Shown: piece after piece, positions 12,172-19,001 of the stretch
Position numbering within the stretch: position 1 is the stretch's first letter
Layout: each line of letters begins with the position of its first letter
Assembly: GCF_012163145.1 (NCBI RefSeq)
Contig: NZ_JAAVTX010000007.1
Span: 1 to 64,000 of the forward strand
Length of the DNA stretch: 64,000 nucleotides
DNA from: Falsiroseomonas frigidaquae
Lineage (GTDB): Bacteria; Pseudomonadota; Alphaproteobacteria; Acetobacterales; Acetobacteraceae
Direction: 5' to 3'
The notes under the pieces: model-generated
The model's database searches: none
What the model saw: the letters and a program-made list of their open reading frames with translations, nothing else
Told to the model about the DNA's origin: nothing
Program-made: the position numbers and the translations under genes

Positions 12172-12834
12172 GTGAGTTCCATCGCCCGCATCCAGACCTT
12201 CGCCTTCGCCGGCATCGAGGCCGTGCCCGTCGAGGTCCAGGTGCAGATCGCGCCCGGCCTGCCGGCCTTCCTCATCGTCGGCCTGCCCGACAAGGCCGTC
12301 GGCGAATCGAAGGAACGCGTGCGCGCGGCGCTGACCGCCATCGGCCTTTCCCTGCCGCCGAAGCGCGTCCTGGTGAACATGGCGCCGGCCGACCTCGCCA
12401 AGGAAGGCAGCCACTTCGACTTGCCCATCGCGCTGGCCGTACTCGCCGCCATGGATGTGCTGCCGCGCGATGAGCTGCATGATTTCGCGGCCCTCGGGGA
12501 GCTGGGGCTGGATGGCGCGCTGGCGCCGGTCGCCGGCGTGCTGCCCGCTGCCATGGCCGCCTCGGCGCGGGAGCTGGGCCTGGTCTGCCCGGCGCAGCAG
12601 GGGCCGGAAGCCGCCTGGGCCGGCCGCATCCAGGTGCTCGCGCCGCCCGACCTGCCGGCGTTGATCAACCACTTCCGGGGAATCCAGACGCTGGCCCAGC
12701 CGGTGCCGCCGCGGCTGGACGACGCGCCCTGGGCCGGCCCCTGCCTCAGCCAGGTGCGCGGCCAGGAAAGCGCCAAGCGGGCGCTGGAGATCGCGGCGGC
12801 CGGCGGCCACAACCTGCTCATGTCAAGGTGTTAG
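12172..12834 (+). pseudogene. comM: comM (YifB, Mg-chelatase-like ATPase), N-terminal half, disrupted by integrated element
   Basis: The first 217 codons of comM, starting GTG and encoding the ChlI N-terminal domain (IARIQTFAFAGIEAVPVEVQ, GLPDKAVGESKERVRAAL, LVNMAPADLAKEGSHFDLPI). It ends at AAGGHNLLM, immediately before the Walker A loop. After that the inserted element supplies three foreign codons (S-R-C) and a TAG. ComM is a hexameric helicase promoting branch migration during natural transformation. The ATP-binding half is on the far side of the element at 18135-19001; the truncated product has no P-loop and should not work as a helicase. Confidence 0.92.
12815..12822. other. attL: element/chromosome junction in comM
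   Basis: The 8-mer TGCTCATG marks the left junction. The right junction, 5,321 bases later, is TGCTGATG; seven of eight bases match. Crossover anywhere in the shared TGCT or ATG restores codons for N-L-L-M-V-G-P-P without a frameshift. Short identities of this kind are expected of serine-integrase crossovers, whose strict core is two bases; which dinucleotide is used cannot be told from one strain. Confidence 0.75.
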
Positions 12835-12886: not shown

Positions 12887-13912
12887 TTAAAAAGGGATGT
12901 CGTCATCCAACGAGCTGTTCGAATGGCTAGATGGGGCAGATGGCTGGTCCACCTTAATCATCCGGGTCCGAACGAGATTAGGTTTCCAGTCATTCGGCAG
13001 CATAATTCGTAGACGACCATCAGAATCGAAGAGAGATTCTGACACATAAAGCAACTTTTGATCGCCATTTTTCTGCATAAGGGCGTATTCGGCATCGTCC
13101 TTGGAGTCCCAGTGTTCACGCTCTAACCGAACCCACTGACGCGCGTTAAGCCAAGCTTCCATTTCCGTTCTGTCGGTAAAAAAAACCCTATAGGGCGCAC
13201 CGGTTAAGGCCTTAATCCTGTTAAATATCGGATGATTCTGGATGATTATCGCATCGAGCGCCTCCTCCCTACCCTGAACCGCTGTAAAAAGCCCGCTCCT
13301 ATCGTTCCGCAAGAGCTCAACCAATTCCTTGAGGGTGTCTGCTGTGGATTTGATAGTATCCGACAGCTGATTTAATTTCTCCTGATTTTGCTGCTGCAAG
13401 TAATTTTCAAATAGTCCCGCCCACTGCTCCTTTAAATAACCAATGACCTCGGGCATGTCATCAAACCCGAATATTTGATTATTAAAGGGCAGGGAATAAA
13501 TTTCTTCCAAGAACTGGTATATTCTTACATCGTCAACGTGATGATATGAGACATCTTTTTCTTTATTCTTTAAGTAGGTCCTGTATTCCGACAGTACGCC
13601 TTTATCAACGAAGACGTATGCTTGCTTTCCTTGAGCAACGGCCGTCTTCAACTCCATATGAGAAATTGAATTATTCGGCCCTTCGCGAGATTGCGTTCCG
13701 AAACGCCCACCCACTATCGAAACAAGCATACTTACTTTTTCGATCTCTCTATAGCAGTACGCTTCCAGCGCATCACGGCTTTCGTAGGTAATATTTCCAC
13801 GTTCGTTAAGAACAGCTTCATATCCCATGGTCGTAATGAAGCGCTCAAGCTCCCCACGCACATGACGAAGATCATAGAAAGTTGAGCTAACAAATACTCT
13901 TGGCCTAGCCAT
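12887..13912 (-). CDS. DUF4062 protein with SSB-like C-terminal acidic tip
   Basis: 341-aa protein. Residues 1-105 form a DUF4062 domain (RPRVFVSSTFYDLRHVRGEL, YCYREIEKVSMLVSIVGGRFG), a TIR/nucleotide-hydrolase-like Rossmann fold also found at the N-terminus of some NACHT/STAND proteins. Residues 165-205 are a predicted coiled coil; 210-320 are an unrecognised alpha/beta domain. A Ser/Pro-rich linker (323-334) leads to the last residues LDDDIPF. The terminal six are identical to the C-terminal protein-docking tip of E. coli SSB, and the layout (domain, flexible linker, acidic tip with terminal Phe) copies SSB. A GGGAG precedes the ATG. The function is unknown; a defence or replication-fork role is inferred. 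Confidence 0.8.
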   Translation of the reverse strand: MARPRVFVSSTFYDLRHVRGELERFITTMGYEAVLNERGNITYESRDALEAYCYREIEKVSMLVSIVGGRFGTQSREGPNNSISHMELKTAVAQGKQAYVFVDKGVLSEYRTYLKNKEKDVSYHHVDDVRIYQFLEEIYSLPFNNQIFGFDDMPEVIGYLKEQWAGLFENYLQQQNQEKLNQLSDTIKSTADTLKELVELLRNDRSGLFTAVQGREEALDAIIIQNHPIFNRIKALTGAPYRVFFTDRTEMEAWLNARQWVRLEREHWDSKDDAEYALMQKNGDQKLLYVSESLFDSDGRLRIMLPNDWKPNLVRTRMIKVDQPSAPSSHSNSSLDDDIPF

Positions 13913-13984: not shown

Positions 13985-14542
13985 TTATCCTGATCCGAGG
14001 AGACGATAGACGCTCGCCCGGCCAATTCCGAGCCGGGTAGCGATTTCCGAAGGCTTCGCACCCTCAGCCTTCAGGCGATGGACTTCCGCCGCCTTAGCCT
14101 GAGCCGTAGGCGCCCGCCCTCTGTAGCGTCCATCCGCCTTTGCCTTGGCAATCCCCTCTCGCTGGCGCTCAAGCATCAATGACCGTTCAAATTCCGCCAC
14201 GGCCCCCAACATGGTTAGCATTAACCGGCCTGTAGGCGTCCCGGTGTCCAGGGCGCTCCCGCCCATGCTCAACACCCTTAAGGCCACTCCCTTGCCTTCC
14301 AGGGCGCTCACAGTAGCCAGTAGATCGGACACGGAGCGCGCCAGGCGATCCGGCTTCGTCACCACCAGAACGTCACCCTCACGAACGAACCCTAGCACCG
14401 CTTCAAGCTGCGCCCGCTTAGCGAGGGATGAAACCCGCTCACTGAATAGCCGCTCGCACCCTGCGGCCTTCAAGTCGCGCTCTTGGGCCTCTAGGCCCGC
14501 TTCCTGTTCAACGGTTGAGGTACGAGCATATCCGACTAGCAT
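13985..14542 (-). CDS. small serine recombinase (resolvase/invertase family)
   Basis: 185-aa site-specific recombinase. The N-terminal catalytic domain begins MLVGYARTSTVEQE, with nucleophile Ser9 in the Y-x-R-x-S motif, and includes VVTKPDRLARSVSDL with the conserved arginines and the long E helix. A C-terminal helix-turn-helix (PSEIATRLGIGRASVYRLL) binds DNA. The length is typical of TnpR/Pin-type enzymes. The upstream intergenic region holds repeated TGAGAC boxes expected of its recombination site, so it probably resolves multimers or cointegrates of the element. Confidence 0.9.
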   Translation of the reverse strand: MLVGYARTSTVEQEAGLEAQERDLKAAGCERLFSERVSSLAKRAQLEAVLGFVREGDVLVVTKPDRLARSVSDLLATVSALEGKGVALRVLSMGGSALDTGTPTGRLMLTMLGAVAEFERSLMLERQREGIAKAKADGRYRGRAPTAQAKAAEVHRLKAEGAKPSEIATRLGIGRASVYRLLGSG

Positions 14543-14670: not shown

Positions 14671-14737
14671 GCCTTCGACCACTGGCCGTTTTGTTAATGC
14701 TATGCAACCTTCGCATCAGTCTGAGGGATCATCGGCC

Positions 14738-15046
14738 ATGCCAAATCCAAAGAAGCTCGCCACGATTATCATAGCATTGCTCGCTGCCGCCTTCTTTATC
14801 GATGTGACGAGTGGGGAGAGCGAATTTGATATAAATGATGACTCTCGGATCGGCTGGAAGGACGTCGGCCTCTCCTTCTCCTTTGTTGTCGTGCGGCCGT
14901 TTATAATTTTTATGAATTCTATATTTGGTGGTGAGGCTAGGCTGTGGCGCTGGACCATCCAAGAGTTGCACGTTGCGGGGATACTGTTTTGGGGGGCGCT
15001 CTGGTTCTGCCTTTTCCGTCTCATGGTTTGGTGGCAGCGAAGATAG
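14738..15046 (+). CDS. small membrane protein of the element, unknown function
   Basis: 102-aa protein with an N-terminal hydrophobic segment (LATIIIALLAAAFFIDV), a second in the middle (VGLSFSFVVVRPFIIFMNSIF) and a third near the C-terminus (AGILFWGALWFCLFRLMVWW), ending in basic residues. No family is recognised. A GAGGG ten bases upstream supports the ATG at 14738 over the ATG at 14702. Its position on a compact island beside a putative defence protein makes a membrane effector or immunity role conceivable, but this is inference only. Confidence 0.6.
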   Translation: MPNPKKLATIIIALLAAAFFIDVTSGESEFDINDDSRIGWKDVGLSFSFVVVRPFIIFMNSIFGGEARLWRWTIQELHVAGILFWGALWFCLFRLMVWWQRR

Positions 15047-15528: not shown

Positions 15529-16302
15529 ATGACTCTAGGAAATCACCAAGCGGTTGCGCCGCACTCCGGTCCTTATGTATTATATCAACACAATACCAAC
15601 CAGCAGCTACCCTCTCAGCATCCTCACCTGACATGGAGCGAAGCTAAGAATCTCATCAACGCTATAGGATACGCCCAGACCTTTCCCCGCCTAAGTCTCT
15701 TTCATTTCACTATTTTATGGAAATACGCCAAAGATTATCCAACCTCTACGGCCCCAGGCATGGAGCTTGAGGGCTGGTCTAAGCGGTACGAGCTTCAAAA
15801 AAAGCTATTTGAAAGAATGACCAAGTGGATTCAATCACAGCGTTTTGGCGATGAATTTCTTCCAAGGCTCTATGTTTGGGTTCGCGAATGGGGACCGAAG
15901 AAAAAGGATCACACTCACCTTCTGATCTATCTGCCAAACCCGGCAATAGCTCAACAGCTACAGGACTTCCTGTTAAGATCGGGAGGTTTTGGTGAAGGTA
16001 TTAAACATGAATCCCCCATATTGCATACCGCACCCAAAACAAATCTAGGAAAGCACTACGTAAGAAGATATCTTCTTAAGATGCTACCGCCGCATCTGAT
16101 GGTTGAAGGGAAGAACGTCGCCAGCTACTTCGGAAATAGCCATCATTTAGAGAAAAACAAACCAGCCGTGATCTATTGCAAGCGGTCTGGATGCTCAAGG
16201 ACACTAGATAGGTTAGCTAGACAGAGGGATGGGTGGGTAGAGAGAGCCATACTTGCTGATCTTGACGGTATTCTTAGATCAAACGGATCGAAGCGTCACT
16301 AG
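15529..16302 (+). CDS. possible HUH-type replication initiator of the element
   Basis: 257-aa soluble protein without a recognised family. Features suggesting an HUH endonuclease fold: a beta strand LSLFHFTILWKYA (56-67), a second strand followed by H-x-H (DHTHLLIYLP, His128 and His130), then a helix with paired tyrosines HYVRRYLLK (Tyr177, Tyr181) in the Y-x-x-[KR]-Y spacing of two-tyrosine Reps. The central H-x-H residue is Thr rather than the usual hydrophobic, so the call is tentative. A C-terminal CKRSGC pair is also present. GAAAGG lies seven bases upstream of the ATG. It could be a rolling-circle Rep, a relaxase-like protein, or unrelated. Confidence 0.5.
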   Translation: MTLGNHQAVAPHSGPYVLYQHNTNQQLPSQHPHLTWSEAKNLINAIGYAQTFPRLSLFHFTILWKYAKDYPTSTAPGMELEGWSKRYELQKKLFERMTKWIQSQRFGDEFLPRLYVWVREWGPKKKDHTHLLIYLPNPAIAQQLQDFLLRSGGFGEGIKHESPILHTAPKTNLGKHYVRRYLLKMLPPHLMVEGKNVASYFGNSHHLEKNKPAVIYCKRSGCSRTLDRLARQRDGWVERAILADLDGILRSNGSKRH

Positions 16303-16506: not shown

Positions 16507-18078
16507 TTATGGGAAGTCGGCTGAGCCGTTTTTCCCATGGATGCTCAACAGAGTGCTGCCGCCTCGGTGCCAGTTAATTTCAAGCGCCGCTTCATCATGC
16601 ATAACGCCAATGGAATGGATCATCTGGCGAAGCATGGCGTTAGCCTTCGATCGATCCAGAGGAACAGCGGCCAGCATAGCGCCACAGGCGGTAGCTCTAC
16701 GATGTAGAGCCACTTCCGAGGCAGTGTTTTGCCGAACAAGCTTCCAAGTCATAGCGGCTTTGATTTCCTCTAGTTTTGCTTCTAAGACATCTTGTCGATC
16801 ACGAAGGGTAGAACGTCTATCTGTGAGACGCAGGTTAATCAGCGCCTCAATTTCAATGGTAAGCATCAACTCGGTCTGTTTAAGCTCATGCATAGCAACA
16901 TCATGAAGCCCTGCGCCCGCAGTCACATTAGGCTTATCGGCTAGTAGATCGGCAAATCCGTAAGCCCTTGATGTTATTGCATTTTCTATATCTTCAAGGG
17001 GGTAACTTGGCGCTGTGCAATCGCCCCGCCTGGCTTTCACACAAACTAGGCGTGGCTTTCCAGCCTTGCTAGAACTACCTTTATTAACCCGAGTCATGGT
17101 AAGGCCGCAGAAAATGCAGAATGCTAGACCTGCAACAAGGCTCTGTAATTCACCCTTCTCCGCCCTTACACGGGGACCGTTAGCCTTCCCTTCCCGCATA
17201 AGCTGAACCCTATCGAACTGCTCCCTTGAGATAACCGCAGGATAGTACCCAGCAATTGCGTCGAGTGCCTTCCTACCTTTCCGACCACTGCTATACTCAA
17301 CTTGATGCGGTATGATTACTCCCACAACGGCCTCATTGCTCAAAATCTTCTGAATATAGGTTTTGTGCCAATACATTGCCTTGCGCTTCTGCTTTGGTCC
17401 GTCACCAAAGGTTTGGATACCCTCGGCATCCAGCATTCGGGCGATCTGTGCGGCTCCCTTACCCATCTCATATAGATCGAATATGTGGCGAATAATTTCC
17501 ATGCGAGCTAGATCAATCTCAATGGCTTCTCCGCTTTTATTCATCTTGAGCCATGCTGGCACCCTTGAAGTCATAGGTTCACTTGAAGCAGCAGCACGCT
17601 TTGCTTTCCATGCCTCACGTAGTCTGCGCCCCTTCGTCGCACTCTCCTCATTGGCCCTAATCATGACCATCAGGCTCTCAAATATCCTGAATGGGCTTTC
17701 GACCATCTCTTTCTTATTGTAAACTTTTTCGTCCTGTACGGTCACGATCGTGATGCCGGAATTTATGATGCTTTGGAAAACCGGCATCGCTTCCCAGGGT
17801 GATTGGCGGCTGAGGCGGTCAAGATTCTCAACCAGCAAGTATGATCCACTTTCGACGATCCCATCTTCAACTGCACGCAGGAATGCCGCTAAGGCTCCCT
17901 TGTTCGCGTTCCTCCCGTAGTATGCCGAGATGCCCGGATCGTTGAGGGACAGGCTATCATCAAGCTCTAGGCCAGTCTTAGCCGCATACTTCTCCGCCAA
18001 TTCCCGTTGGCGGCGCGTGCTGTCGCCTGTCGCCTGTTCTGGTGTTGAAAACCTCAGGTAGCTGTACGCTTTGGTCAT
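16507..18078 (-). CDS. large serine recombinase (integrase)
   Basis: 523-aa integrase. The resolvase-like catalytic domain (1-150) has Ser11 in YLRFST and the arginine motif NLDRLSRQ. The Recombinase domain follows (about 170-300; IARMLDAEGIQTFGDG, IQKILSNEAVVGV). Then comes a zinc ribbon with Cys321/Cys324 and Cys346/Cys354, and a C-terminal coiled-coil region (about 400-450). This architecture is that of phage and island integrases that recombine attP with attB in one direction unless helped by a directionality factor; no such factor is recognised here. The gene starts 57 bases from the right junction, the usual int-next-to-attP layout, and is the likely author of the comM insertion. Confidence 0.92.
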   Translation of the reverse strand: MTKAYSYLRFSTPEQATGDSTRRQRELAEKYAAKTGLELDDSLSLNDPGISAYYGRNANKGALAAFLRAVEDGIVESGSYLLVENLDRLSRQSPWEAMPVFQSIINSGITIVTVQDEKVYNKKEMVESPFRIFESLMVMIRANEESATKGRRLREAWKAKRAAASSEPMTSRVPAWLKMNKSGEAIEIDLARMEIIRHIFDLYEMGKGAAQIARMLDAEGIQTFGDGPKQKRKAMYWHKTYIQKILSNEAVVGVIIPHQVEYSSGRKGRKALDAIAGYYPAVISREQFDRVQLMREGKANGPRVRAEKGELQSLVAGLAFCIFCGLTMTRVNKGSSSKAGKPRLVCVKARRGDCTAPSYPLEDIENAITSRAYGFADLLADKPNVTAGAGLHDVAMHELKQTELMLTIEIEALINLRLTDRRSTLRDRQDVLEAKLEEIKAAMTWKLVRQNTASEVALHRRATACGAMLAAVPLDRSKANAMLRQMIHSIGVMHDEAALEINWHRGGSTLLSIHGKNGSADFP

Positions 18079-18134: not shown

Positions 18135-19001
18135 ATGCTGATGGTCGGCCCGCCGGGTGCAGGCAAATCCATGCTCGCCGCCCGCCTGCCCGGCCTGCTG
18201 CCGGACCTGACTCCGGCGGAGGCGCTGGAGATCTCCCTGGTGCATTCGGTGGCCGGCATGCTGAGCGAGGGCCGCCTGCTGAAGCGCCCACCCTTCCGCG
18301 ACCCGCACCATTCGGCCTCCGTCCCGGCGCTGGTCGGCGGTGGCGCGCGGGCGCGGCCGGGGGAGATCTCGCTCGCCCATCTCGGCGTGCTGTTCCTCGA
18401 TGAGTGGCCGGAATTTCCCCGCGCGGCGCTGGAGGCGCTGCGCCAGCCGATGGAAACCGGCCGCACCACCGTCAGCCGCGCCAATGCCCATGTCACCTAC
18501 CCGGCCCGCTTCCAATGCGTGGCGGCGATGAACCCCTGCCGCTGCGGCTATCTCGGCGAGCCCGCCCGCGAATGCGCCCGCGCGCCGGTATGCGGGCAGG
18601 ACTACCAGCAGCGCCTGTCCGGCCCGCTGCTGGATCGCATGGATGTGGTGATCGAGGTGCAGCCGCTCGCCCCCGCCGAGCTCACCCGGGCCCCGCCCGG
18701 CGAGCGGACGGAGGTGGTCGCCGCCCGCGTCGCCGCCGCGCGCGACCGCCAGCGCAGGCGGGGCACCACCCGCTGCAATGCCGAAGCCGAGTGGGACGCG
18801 CTGCAACCGATGGCCGATGCGGATGCGCTCGCCTTGCTGGAGACCGCGTCCACCCGGCTCCGCCTGTCCACCCGCGGCCAGGTGCGGACGCTGCGCGTGG
18901 CGCGCAGCATCGCCGACCTCGCGGCGGTGGAACGGGTGGGGCGTACGCATGTGGCGGAGGCGCTGGCTTTCCGGCATCGTATGCCCGGACGTGCCAACTG
19001 A
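18135..19001 (+). pseudogene. comM: comM (YifB), C-terminal half with AAA+ ATPase, separated by element
   Basis: Continues comM from the Walker A loop: MVGPPGAGKSMLAARLPGLLP, then Walker B VLFLDEWPEF, sensor region FQCVAAMNPCRCGYLG, and the C-terminal lid STRGQVRTLRVARSIADLAA. With the 217 upstream residues it makes a 502-residue ComM, the normal size. The junction supplies in-frame ATGs (18135, 18141), so a fragment with an intact P-loop but no N-terminal domain could be translated, although no good ribosome-binding site is visible. Excision of the element would restore the gene exactly. Confidence 0.92.
18136..18143. other. attR: element/chromosome junction in comM
   Basis: The right junction 8-mer TGCTGATG matches the left junction TGCTCATG at seven of eight bases. 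To its right comM resumes in frame with GTC-GGC-CCG (V-G-P). To its left is the AT-rich element end adjoining the integrase start. Confidence 0.75.

What the first reader, a model, noticed from the sequence alone, without database searches (positions are those of the whole stretch)
12887..13912. DUF4062 protein carrying an exact SSB C-terminal tip (DDDIPF)
The last six residues match the E. coli SSB tip exactly, and they follow a Ser/Pro-rich flexible linker, as in SSB itself. DUF4062 is a TIR/nucleotide-hydrolase-like domain seen in immune-type STAND proteins. A mobile-element protein combining this domain, a coiled coil, an unrecognised C-terminal domain and an SSB tip could dock onto SSB-binding host proteins (RecQ, RecO, PriA, exonuclease I, DNA polymerase III chi). 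It could also sense phage single-strand-binding or recombination proteins, or bring the host replication restart machinery to the element. I know of no described system with this combination.
Basis: partly seen in the sequence, partly recalled or inferred. Interest (0 to 1): 0.85.

Follow-up and report, generated by a model that had tools for sequence, protein, structure and literature searches.

The report
TIR-like immune enzyme with SSB tail
A gene on a small mobile element encodes a probable cell-suicide immune enzyme that ends in a copy of the docking tail of the cell's own single-strand DNA-binding protein; the tail is kept in its relatives and turns up on other immune proteins, so it is probably a working part rather than chance.

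Summary
ORF 12887-13912(-), 341 aa, has a DUF4062 domain and ends SSLDDDIPF. The host's SSB ends SDLDDDIPF; these are the only two D[DE]IPF-stop sites in its genome. The tip is conserved: 4 of 4 other genomes sharing the C-terminal domain keep it after unalignable linkers, while 19 of 19 DUF4062 proteins read with other or short C-termini lack it. It recurs in a second DUF4062 clade, a TIR family, and Abi_C, OLD, PIN and kinase proteins. A permuted motif ended no ORF above 35 aa in 100 genomes. A 2026 preprint (PMC13174449, partly read) shows DUF4062 is a TIR-like NADase in the antiphage system Swarozyc. Best reading: a Swarozyc-type NADase, cargo of a ~5.3 kb serine-integrase element, whose tip docks on SSB-tail-binding proteins; phage recombination mediators are the most attractive trigger. 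NADase activity, binding and defence are inferred. New variant of a known kind; the shared tag may be a new principle.

The parts
12887..13912 (-). DUF4062 + stalk + auxiliary domain + SSB tip gene, 341 aa
13640..13900 (-). DUF4062 (TIR-like) domain, aa 5-91; conserved Glu E87 at 13652-13654
   Evidence: Pfam PF13271; E87 invariant in 11 of 11 aligned DUF4062 proteins
13304..13456 (-). predicted long helix, aa 153-203, likely stalk
   Evidence: AlphaFold2 model, low to middling confidence
12953..13279 (-). auxiliary (C-terminal) domain, about aa 212-320, shared only with tip-bearing homologues in the genomes read
   Evidence: fold not resolved
12911..12952 (-). Ser/Pro-rich linker, aa 321-334
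   Evidence: does not align among homologues
12890..12910 (-). SSB-type tip LDDDIPF, aa 335-341
   Evidence: same as host SSB tail; conserved in homologues
13985..14542 (-). small serine recombinase (resolvase/invertase)
   Evidence: PF00239, E 9.3e-41
14702..15046 (+). ORF of 114 aa, no family found
15529..16302 (+). possible rolling-circle replication initiator (below Pfam cut-off)
   Evidence: PF23343, 24.6 bits against 27.8
16507..18078 (-). large serine recombinase, likely integrase of the element
   Evidence: PF00239, PF07508, PF13408; phrog_95 integrase
12172..12822 (+). 5' part of the interrupted ChlI/Mg-chelatase-like gene (comM, name recalled), last residues HNLLM
   Evidence: PF13541, PF01078
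18144..19001 (+). 3' part of the same gene, resuming VGPPGAGKSM

Best explanation
It is a Swarozyc-type, TIR-like NADase carried as defence cargo on a small integrative element. The DUF4062 domain (E87) is the NAD+-destroying effector, the long helix holds it in a silent oligomer, and the auxiliary domain with the SSB tip is the input module. The tip lets the protein plug into pockets that normally grip the host SSB tail. During infection, phage proteins that must bind that tail (recombination mediators of the Sak, Sak4 or YbcN kind, some of them rings), or host SSB partners crowded at phage replication sites, bind several copies at once, cluster the TIR-like domains and set off NAD+ loss and abortive infection. 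Shown here: the domain, the conserved Glu, the conserved tip, the mobile context, the recurrence of the tip on other immune effectors. Inferred: NADase activity, defence, tip binding, the trigger.
For: DUF4062 match and invariant E87; DUF4062 proteins shown to be NADases and antiphage in PMC13174449. Predicted TIR/NDT-type topology with a long helix and Foldseek hits to TIR domains (RPS4 first, second; SARM1, SPARTA), NDT and DNPH1. Tip equal to host SSB tail and kept in 4 of 4 other genomes. Tip kept in the 2 relatives of the second DUF4062 clade that cover its C-terminal domain and in close relatives of the TIR protein. Element context. Phage mediators that need the SSB tail: PMC5928155, PMC11846896, PMC4118853 (passages).
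Against: No activity, binding or defence data for this protein. KpSwz is fired by the phage portal through its auxiliary domain, without an SSB tip (PMC13174449), and 19 of 19 DUF4062 proteins read with other or short C-termini lack the tip, so the family does not need it. No known defence genes were found in the element. Lambda Orf binds SSB without its last ten residues. Tips also occur on DNA-repair and mobile proteins, so the tip alone does not mean immunity.
Confidence: 0.5

Rival explanations
1. Targeting rather than sensing: the tip only brings the NADase to replication forks through host SSB partners, and the auxiliary domain senses a separate phage signal, as KpSwz senses the portal.
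For: KpSwz auxiliary domain binds the portal; the auxiliary domain here is conserved together with the tip.
Against: NAD+ loss is cell-wide, so a place at the fork gives no obvious gain.
Confidence: 0.22
2. Self-restraint: the tip folds back on the auxiliary domain or on a neighbouring copy and keeps the enzyme off, as the SSB tail can touch its own DNA-binding domain; a phage or host SSB-tail binder or SSB itself releases it.
For: Tip and auxiliary domain are always found together in the homologues read; the SSB tail is reported to touch its own DNA-binding site (PMC5928155 passage).
Against: The tip is shared by proteins with unrelated C-terminal domains, which favours an outside partner.
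Confidence: 0.12
3. The protein serves the element's own rolling-circle replication or maintenance, with the tip recruiting host replication proteins or the NADase acting as a stability toxin.
For: Initiator-like genes in the window element and in the Komagataeibacter element.
Against: DUF4062 proteins are antiphage effectors (PMC13174449); the two initiator-like proteins show no similarity to each other by BLASTP.
Confidence: 0.1
4. The tip is a coincidence of a short acidic C-terminus.
For: The motif is only six or seven residues long.
Against: Conservation across unalignable linkers in two DUF4062 clades and a TIR family; permuted-motif control and composition estimate.
Confidence: 0.03

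Closest known systems
Swarozyc (KpSwz), DUF4062 TIR-like NADase antiphage system (PMC13174449; abstract, introduction, results up to the vault cryo-EM part and figure legends read)
   Same: DUF4062 effector with conserved Glu, helical stalk, C-terminal auxiliary domain, single gene, spread by horizontal transfer.
   Different: The parts read mention no SSB tail, and a term search of the main text for SSB found none.
Bacterial SSB C-terminal tail (SSB-Ct)
   Same: Last seven residues identical to the host SSB, after a flexible linker.
   Different: No OB fold: no SSB domain match.
Defences that respond to phage SSB or phage recombinases (AbpAB, PMC10732053, title and start of abstract seen; SaPI2 Stl2, PMC11846896, passages; Retron-Eco8 and Hna, PMC12887533 and PMC13381803, passages; that SSB is their trigger is partly recalled)
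   Same: Phage single-strand DNA handling as the infection cue.
   Different: There the defence reads the SSB or the recombinase; here the effector itself wears the SSB tail and would read SSB-tail binders.

Membership tests
DUF4062 (PF13271), TIR-like | Pfam match above the curated cut-off | tested here: met
   56 bits against 24.7
DUF4062 (PF13271), TIR-like | conserved catalytic-position Glu | tested here: met
   E87 invariant in 11 of 11 aligned proteins; its equivalence to KpSwz E97 is inferred, as that sequence was not at hand
DUF4062 (PF13271), TIR-like | TIR-like fold | tested here: inconclusive
   Foldseek hits to TIR, NDT and DNPH1 folds, but models have mean pLDDT 58 and 62.5, and the first hit of the second search is ExoVII at probability 0.63
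Swarozyc | NAD+ hydrolysis dependent on the Glu | not testable with these tools
   needs an enzyme assay
Swarozyc | antiphage defence by abortive infection | not testable with these tools
   needs phage challenge
Swarozyc | auxiliary domain of the KpSwz (winged-helix, portal-binding) type | tested here: inconclusive
   KpSwz sequence not available; domain not resolved in the models
SSB-tail (SSB-Ct) bearing protein | C-terminal D[DE]IPF after a flexible linker | tested here: met
SSB-tail (SSB-Ct) bearing protein | binds SSB partner proteins through the tail | not testable with these tools
SSB (PF00436) | OB-fold SSB domain | tested here: not met
   no PF00436 match among Pfam families up to E 1

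The most novel reading that the evidence does not exclude
The SSB tail is a transferable immune tag: unrelated bacterial effectors (DUF4062 and TIR enzymes, OLD and PIN nucleases, Abi_C proteins, a kinase) have independently gained it as an integrated decoy of host SSB, so that phage proteins that must grip the SSB tail bind, cluster and fire the effector. A phage could then escape only by giving up its contact with SSB.
Probability: 0.35. Interest if true: 0.92.

Novelty: new variant of a known kind. Interest (0 to 1): 0.74.

Why it matters
If true, DUF4062/TIR immunity has a new kind of input, mimicry of a host hub peptide, and a simple rule (a non-SSB protein ending in D[DE]IPF) by which further defence genes could be found. 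It would also show how an effector can watch a contact that many phages need, and it can be tested at once by deleting six or seven residues.

Tried and rejected
Chance tip: rejected on conservation and controls. Matching of the fourth-last residue (D or E) to the host SSB: it agrees in the 5 genomes that carry the window family, own included, and in G380, but over the alphaproteobacterial survey only 16 of 24 tips agree, Fisher p = 0.079, so it is not claimed. Scans with the single protein found no relative in genome contigs or viral contigs and only partial DUF4062 matches in plasmids and phages; a profile scan of viral contigs also found none. Attachment repeats of the window element: no convincing repeat at the junctions; the 13-bp match lies in the flanks and is taken as chance. 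PDB sequence search: 3 matches, best E 0.43, taken as chance. Fold of the auxiliary domain: not resolved with 4 or 8 sequences. The PADLOC AbiEii match at aa 110-160 (E 0.0013) was judged weak. PbpC (L176) and a 90-aa ORF (L169) among the tip ends are probably chance. Rfam, promoter, terminator and tandem-repeat scans were not run. The search for the word Swarozyc found nothing, probably for reasons of spelling, and says nothing.

ORFs under 90 aa were then dropped and only multi-hit genomes kept: 56 non-SSB ORFs in 38 genomes, 57 with the window protein, in 25 clusters. Of the 23 ORFs in the DUF6511-like cluster only L216 was scanned against Pfam. Genomes with one tip site were taken to hold SSB alone unless a locus was returned. 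Four tip sites of multi-hit genomes (one each in G304, G312, G316, G350) were not fetched. The place list was cut, but its per-genome counts were complete and the multi-hit genomes outside the class were searched again. In one search, 40 of 172 plasmid records were listed and 3 read, 2 of 6 were read.

Full report
OBSERVATION. The ORF at 12887-13912 (-) encodes 341 aa ending ...DQPSAPSSHSNSSLDDDIPF. Pfam finds DUF4062 (PF13271) at aa 5-91, 56 bits against a cut-off of 24.7. The one PF00436 protein found in the genome is SSB, ending ...PPKGGSDLDDDIPF. A DNA pattern for D[DE]IPF-stop occurs twice in the 6.08 Mb genome: in SSB and in this gene.

IS IT CHANCE? With the composition of 11 DUF4062 proteins, about 0.007 proteins per 5000 should end this way. 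In 100 related genomes the permuted motif D[DE]PIF had 13 sites; 9 ended TGG, which is no stop, and the 4 with a true stop closed ORFs of 7, 8, 25 and 35 aa. In the same 100 genomes the real motif closed 12 non-SSB ORFs of 125 aa or more, besides this gene, among the 14 other genomes with two or more sites, whose sites were all fetched.

HOMOLOGUES. 5 of 299 genomes of the order and 7 of 398 of the family had a match, own genome included. Five of them (own, G136, G148, G077, G180) hold the C-terminal domain, and all five end in the tip: SLDDDIPF, DDDEIPF (two near-identical copies), LDEEIPF and LDDEIPF. The last is a fragment at a contig edge that begins inside the C-terminal domain. Three of them are named: Komagataeibacter nataicola, Acetobacter estunensis and an Acidocella MAG, which places the host in the Acetobacteraceae (inference). 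The other two family genomes have DUF4062 with a short or other C-terminus and no tip (L016, L017). Identity to the window protein is 47-50%; D336, I339, P340 and F341 are invariant and the linker before them does not align.

THE TIP FOLLOWS THE C-TERMINAL DOMAIN. A tip search in 299 genomes of the phylum, with the multi-hit genomes read, gave a second DUF4062 protein, L148 of G380, 368 aa, ending KLDDEIPF (DUF4062 E 1.2e-28). Outside DUF4062 its only BLASTP match to the window protein is the tip itself. Its relatives were then sought by sequence, not by tip: G1075 (48%) ends VEDEIPF and S. meliloti pSymA (40%) ends DLDDDIPF; these are the two relatives read that cover the C-terminal domain. 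Of 6 relatives in 188 genomes, the other 5 match only in the DUF4062 part and lack the tip (L231-L235). Also without the tip: Vibrio, Salmonella, Enterococcus and Acinetobacter-phage proteins, four viral-contig proteins, four from the phylum search and the two from the family search: 19 of 19. This is not a random sample, some of these proteins are short, and whether any of their C-terminal domains is distantly related to that of L148 was not tested.

OTHER PROTEINS WITH THE TIP. The survey gave 57 non-SSB ORFs of 90 aa or more in 25 clusters, window protein included. Seven clusters have an immune-effector type domain: the two DUF4062 proteins, a TIR protein (L116, PF13676), Abi_C (L091/L092), OLD-like TOPRIM (L093) and PIN_12 (L072), and a protein kinase with PADLOC matches to mad6 and PD-T4-6 models (L195). 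These are domain matches; none was shown to defend. The TIR protein's close relatives, found by sequence, keep the tip: G1020 (73%) and two near-identical Klebsiella plasmid proteins (77%); 3 of 3 distant TIR relatives read do not. The other clusters are DNA-metabolism or mobile proteins (UvrD/PcrA, XseB, a DEAD helicase, a primase zinc-ribbon protein, an ArdC-like protein, DUF6511), unknown, or probably chance. So the tip is a general docking motif that immune effectors also use; an enrichment for immune proteins was not tested.

WHAT IT IS. A preprint of May 2026 (PMC13174449; I read the abstract, introduction, results up to the vault cryo-EM part and figure legends; a term search of the main text for SSB found nothing) shows that DUF4062 is a TIR-like NADase, that K. 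pneumoniae Swarozyc (KpSwz) protects by abortive infection through E97, and that its auxiliary domain binds the phage portal ring in many copies. The window protein has the same plan: DUF4062, a predicted 51-residue helix, an auxiliary domain. E87, with S82 and A91, is invariant in 11 of 11 aligned DUF4062 proteins. Two AlphaFold models (mean pLDDT 58 and 62.5) find TIR, nucleoside deoxyribosyltransferase and DNPH1 folds in the PDB; in the second search the first hit is ExoVII at probability 0.63, probably through the long helix, and the RPS4 TIR domain is second. The auxiliary domain is not resolved.

WHERE IT SITS. A gene that I recall as comM (ChlI/Mg_chelatase domains) breaks off at 12822 after HNLLM and resumes at 18144 with VGPPGAGKSM. 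Between lie about 5.3 kb at 50% G+C, between flanks of 70 and 74%: the DUF4062 gene (45%), a small serine recombinase, a 114-aa ORF, an ORF with sub-threshold similarity to rolling-circle initiators, and a large serine recombinase at the far end. In Komagataeibacter the homologue lies in an element of about 8 kb with tyrosine integrase, an initiator-like protein, MobC and relaxase, with direct repeats of 61-62 bp (97%) at its ends and 99.9% identity over 8049 bp between two genomes. In A. estunensis it follows an integrase-like gene near a contig end.

HOW IT MAY WORK. SSB tails are gripped by host repair proteins and by phage recombination proteins: Sak4 needs the last six residues of its SSB to bind SSB-covered DNA (PMC5928155, passages), ring-forming Sak80alpha works with the tail of its SSB (PMC11846896, passages), and YbcN loses SSB binding when the tail is cut or mutated, whereas lambda Orf does not (PMC4118853, passages). 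KpSwz is fired by multivalent binding to a ring. I therefore propose that the tip is bait: an oligomeric SSB-tail binder gathers several copies and switches on NAD+ loss. Targeting to forks, self-restraint and element upkeep are rivals that the data do not exclude.

NOVELTY. Searches of an open-access library found no account of an SSB tail on an immune effector; most subscription papers are not in it. Phage SSB as a trigger is known for AbpAB (PMC10732053, title seen); for Retron-Eco8 and Hna I saw listings and passages that deal with SSB and partly recall the trigger. As a protein this is a new variant of the DUF4062 NADase kind; the shared tag would be a new principle if the bait model holds.

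Noticed in passing
L132-L142 (part), L197-L221 (part), e.g. L216:1004-1453:-: A mobile-element-like family (L216 matches PF20121 DUF6511 and phrog_21342) ends in DDIPF or DEIPF; 23 ORFs cluster together, up to five counted in one genome.
   Followed up: partly
L157, L160, L171, L181: UvrD/PcrA-type helicases of four alphaproteobacterial genomes end in DDIPF (L157 scanned against Pfam, the rest by clustering).
   Followed up: partly
L075:641-1015:+: An exonuclease VII small subunit (XseB) ends in GLDDEIPF, like its host's SSB.
   Followed up: no
L095:204-875:-: An unknown 224-aa protein ends SPDWNAPKGGDLDDEIPF, close to its host SSB's SPSWDAPKGGDLDDEIPF, as if the whole tail had been copied.
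   Followed up: no
L077, L078, L149: An unknown family of 253-268 aa proteins in three genomes ends in DD[DE]IPF.
   Followed up: no
L011:3388-11436: An element of about 8 kb with integrase, relaxase and the tip-bearing DUF4062 gene is 99.9% identical in two Komagataeibacter-genus genomes and ends in 61-62 bp direct repeats.
   Followed up: partly
L240:2019-3362:+: A DUF4062 gene without the tip lies among phage morphogenesis and baseplate genes on a Salmonella plasmid record.
   Followed up: no
L236:1174-3411 and L236:9427-11115: The S. meliloti tip-bearing DUF4062 gene lies near genes with PADLOC matches to IetA and to a subtilase.
   Followed up: no
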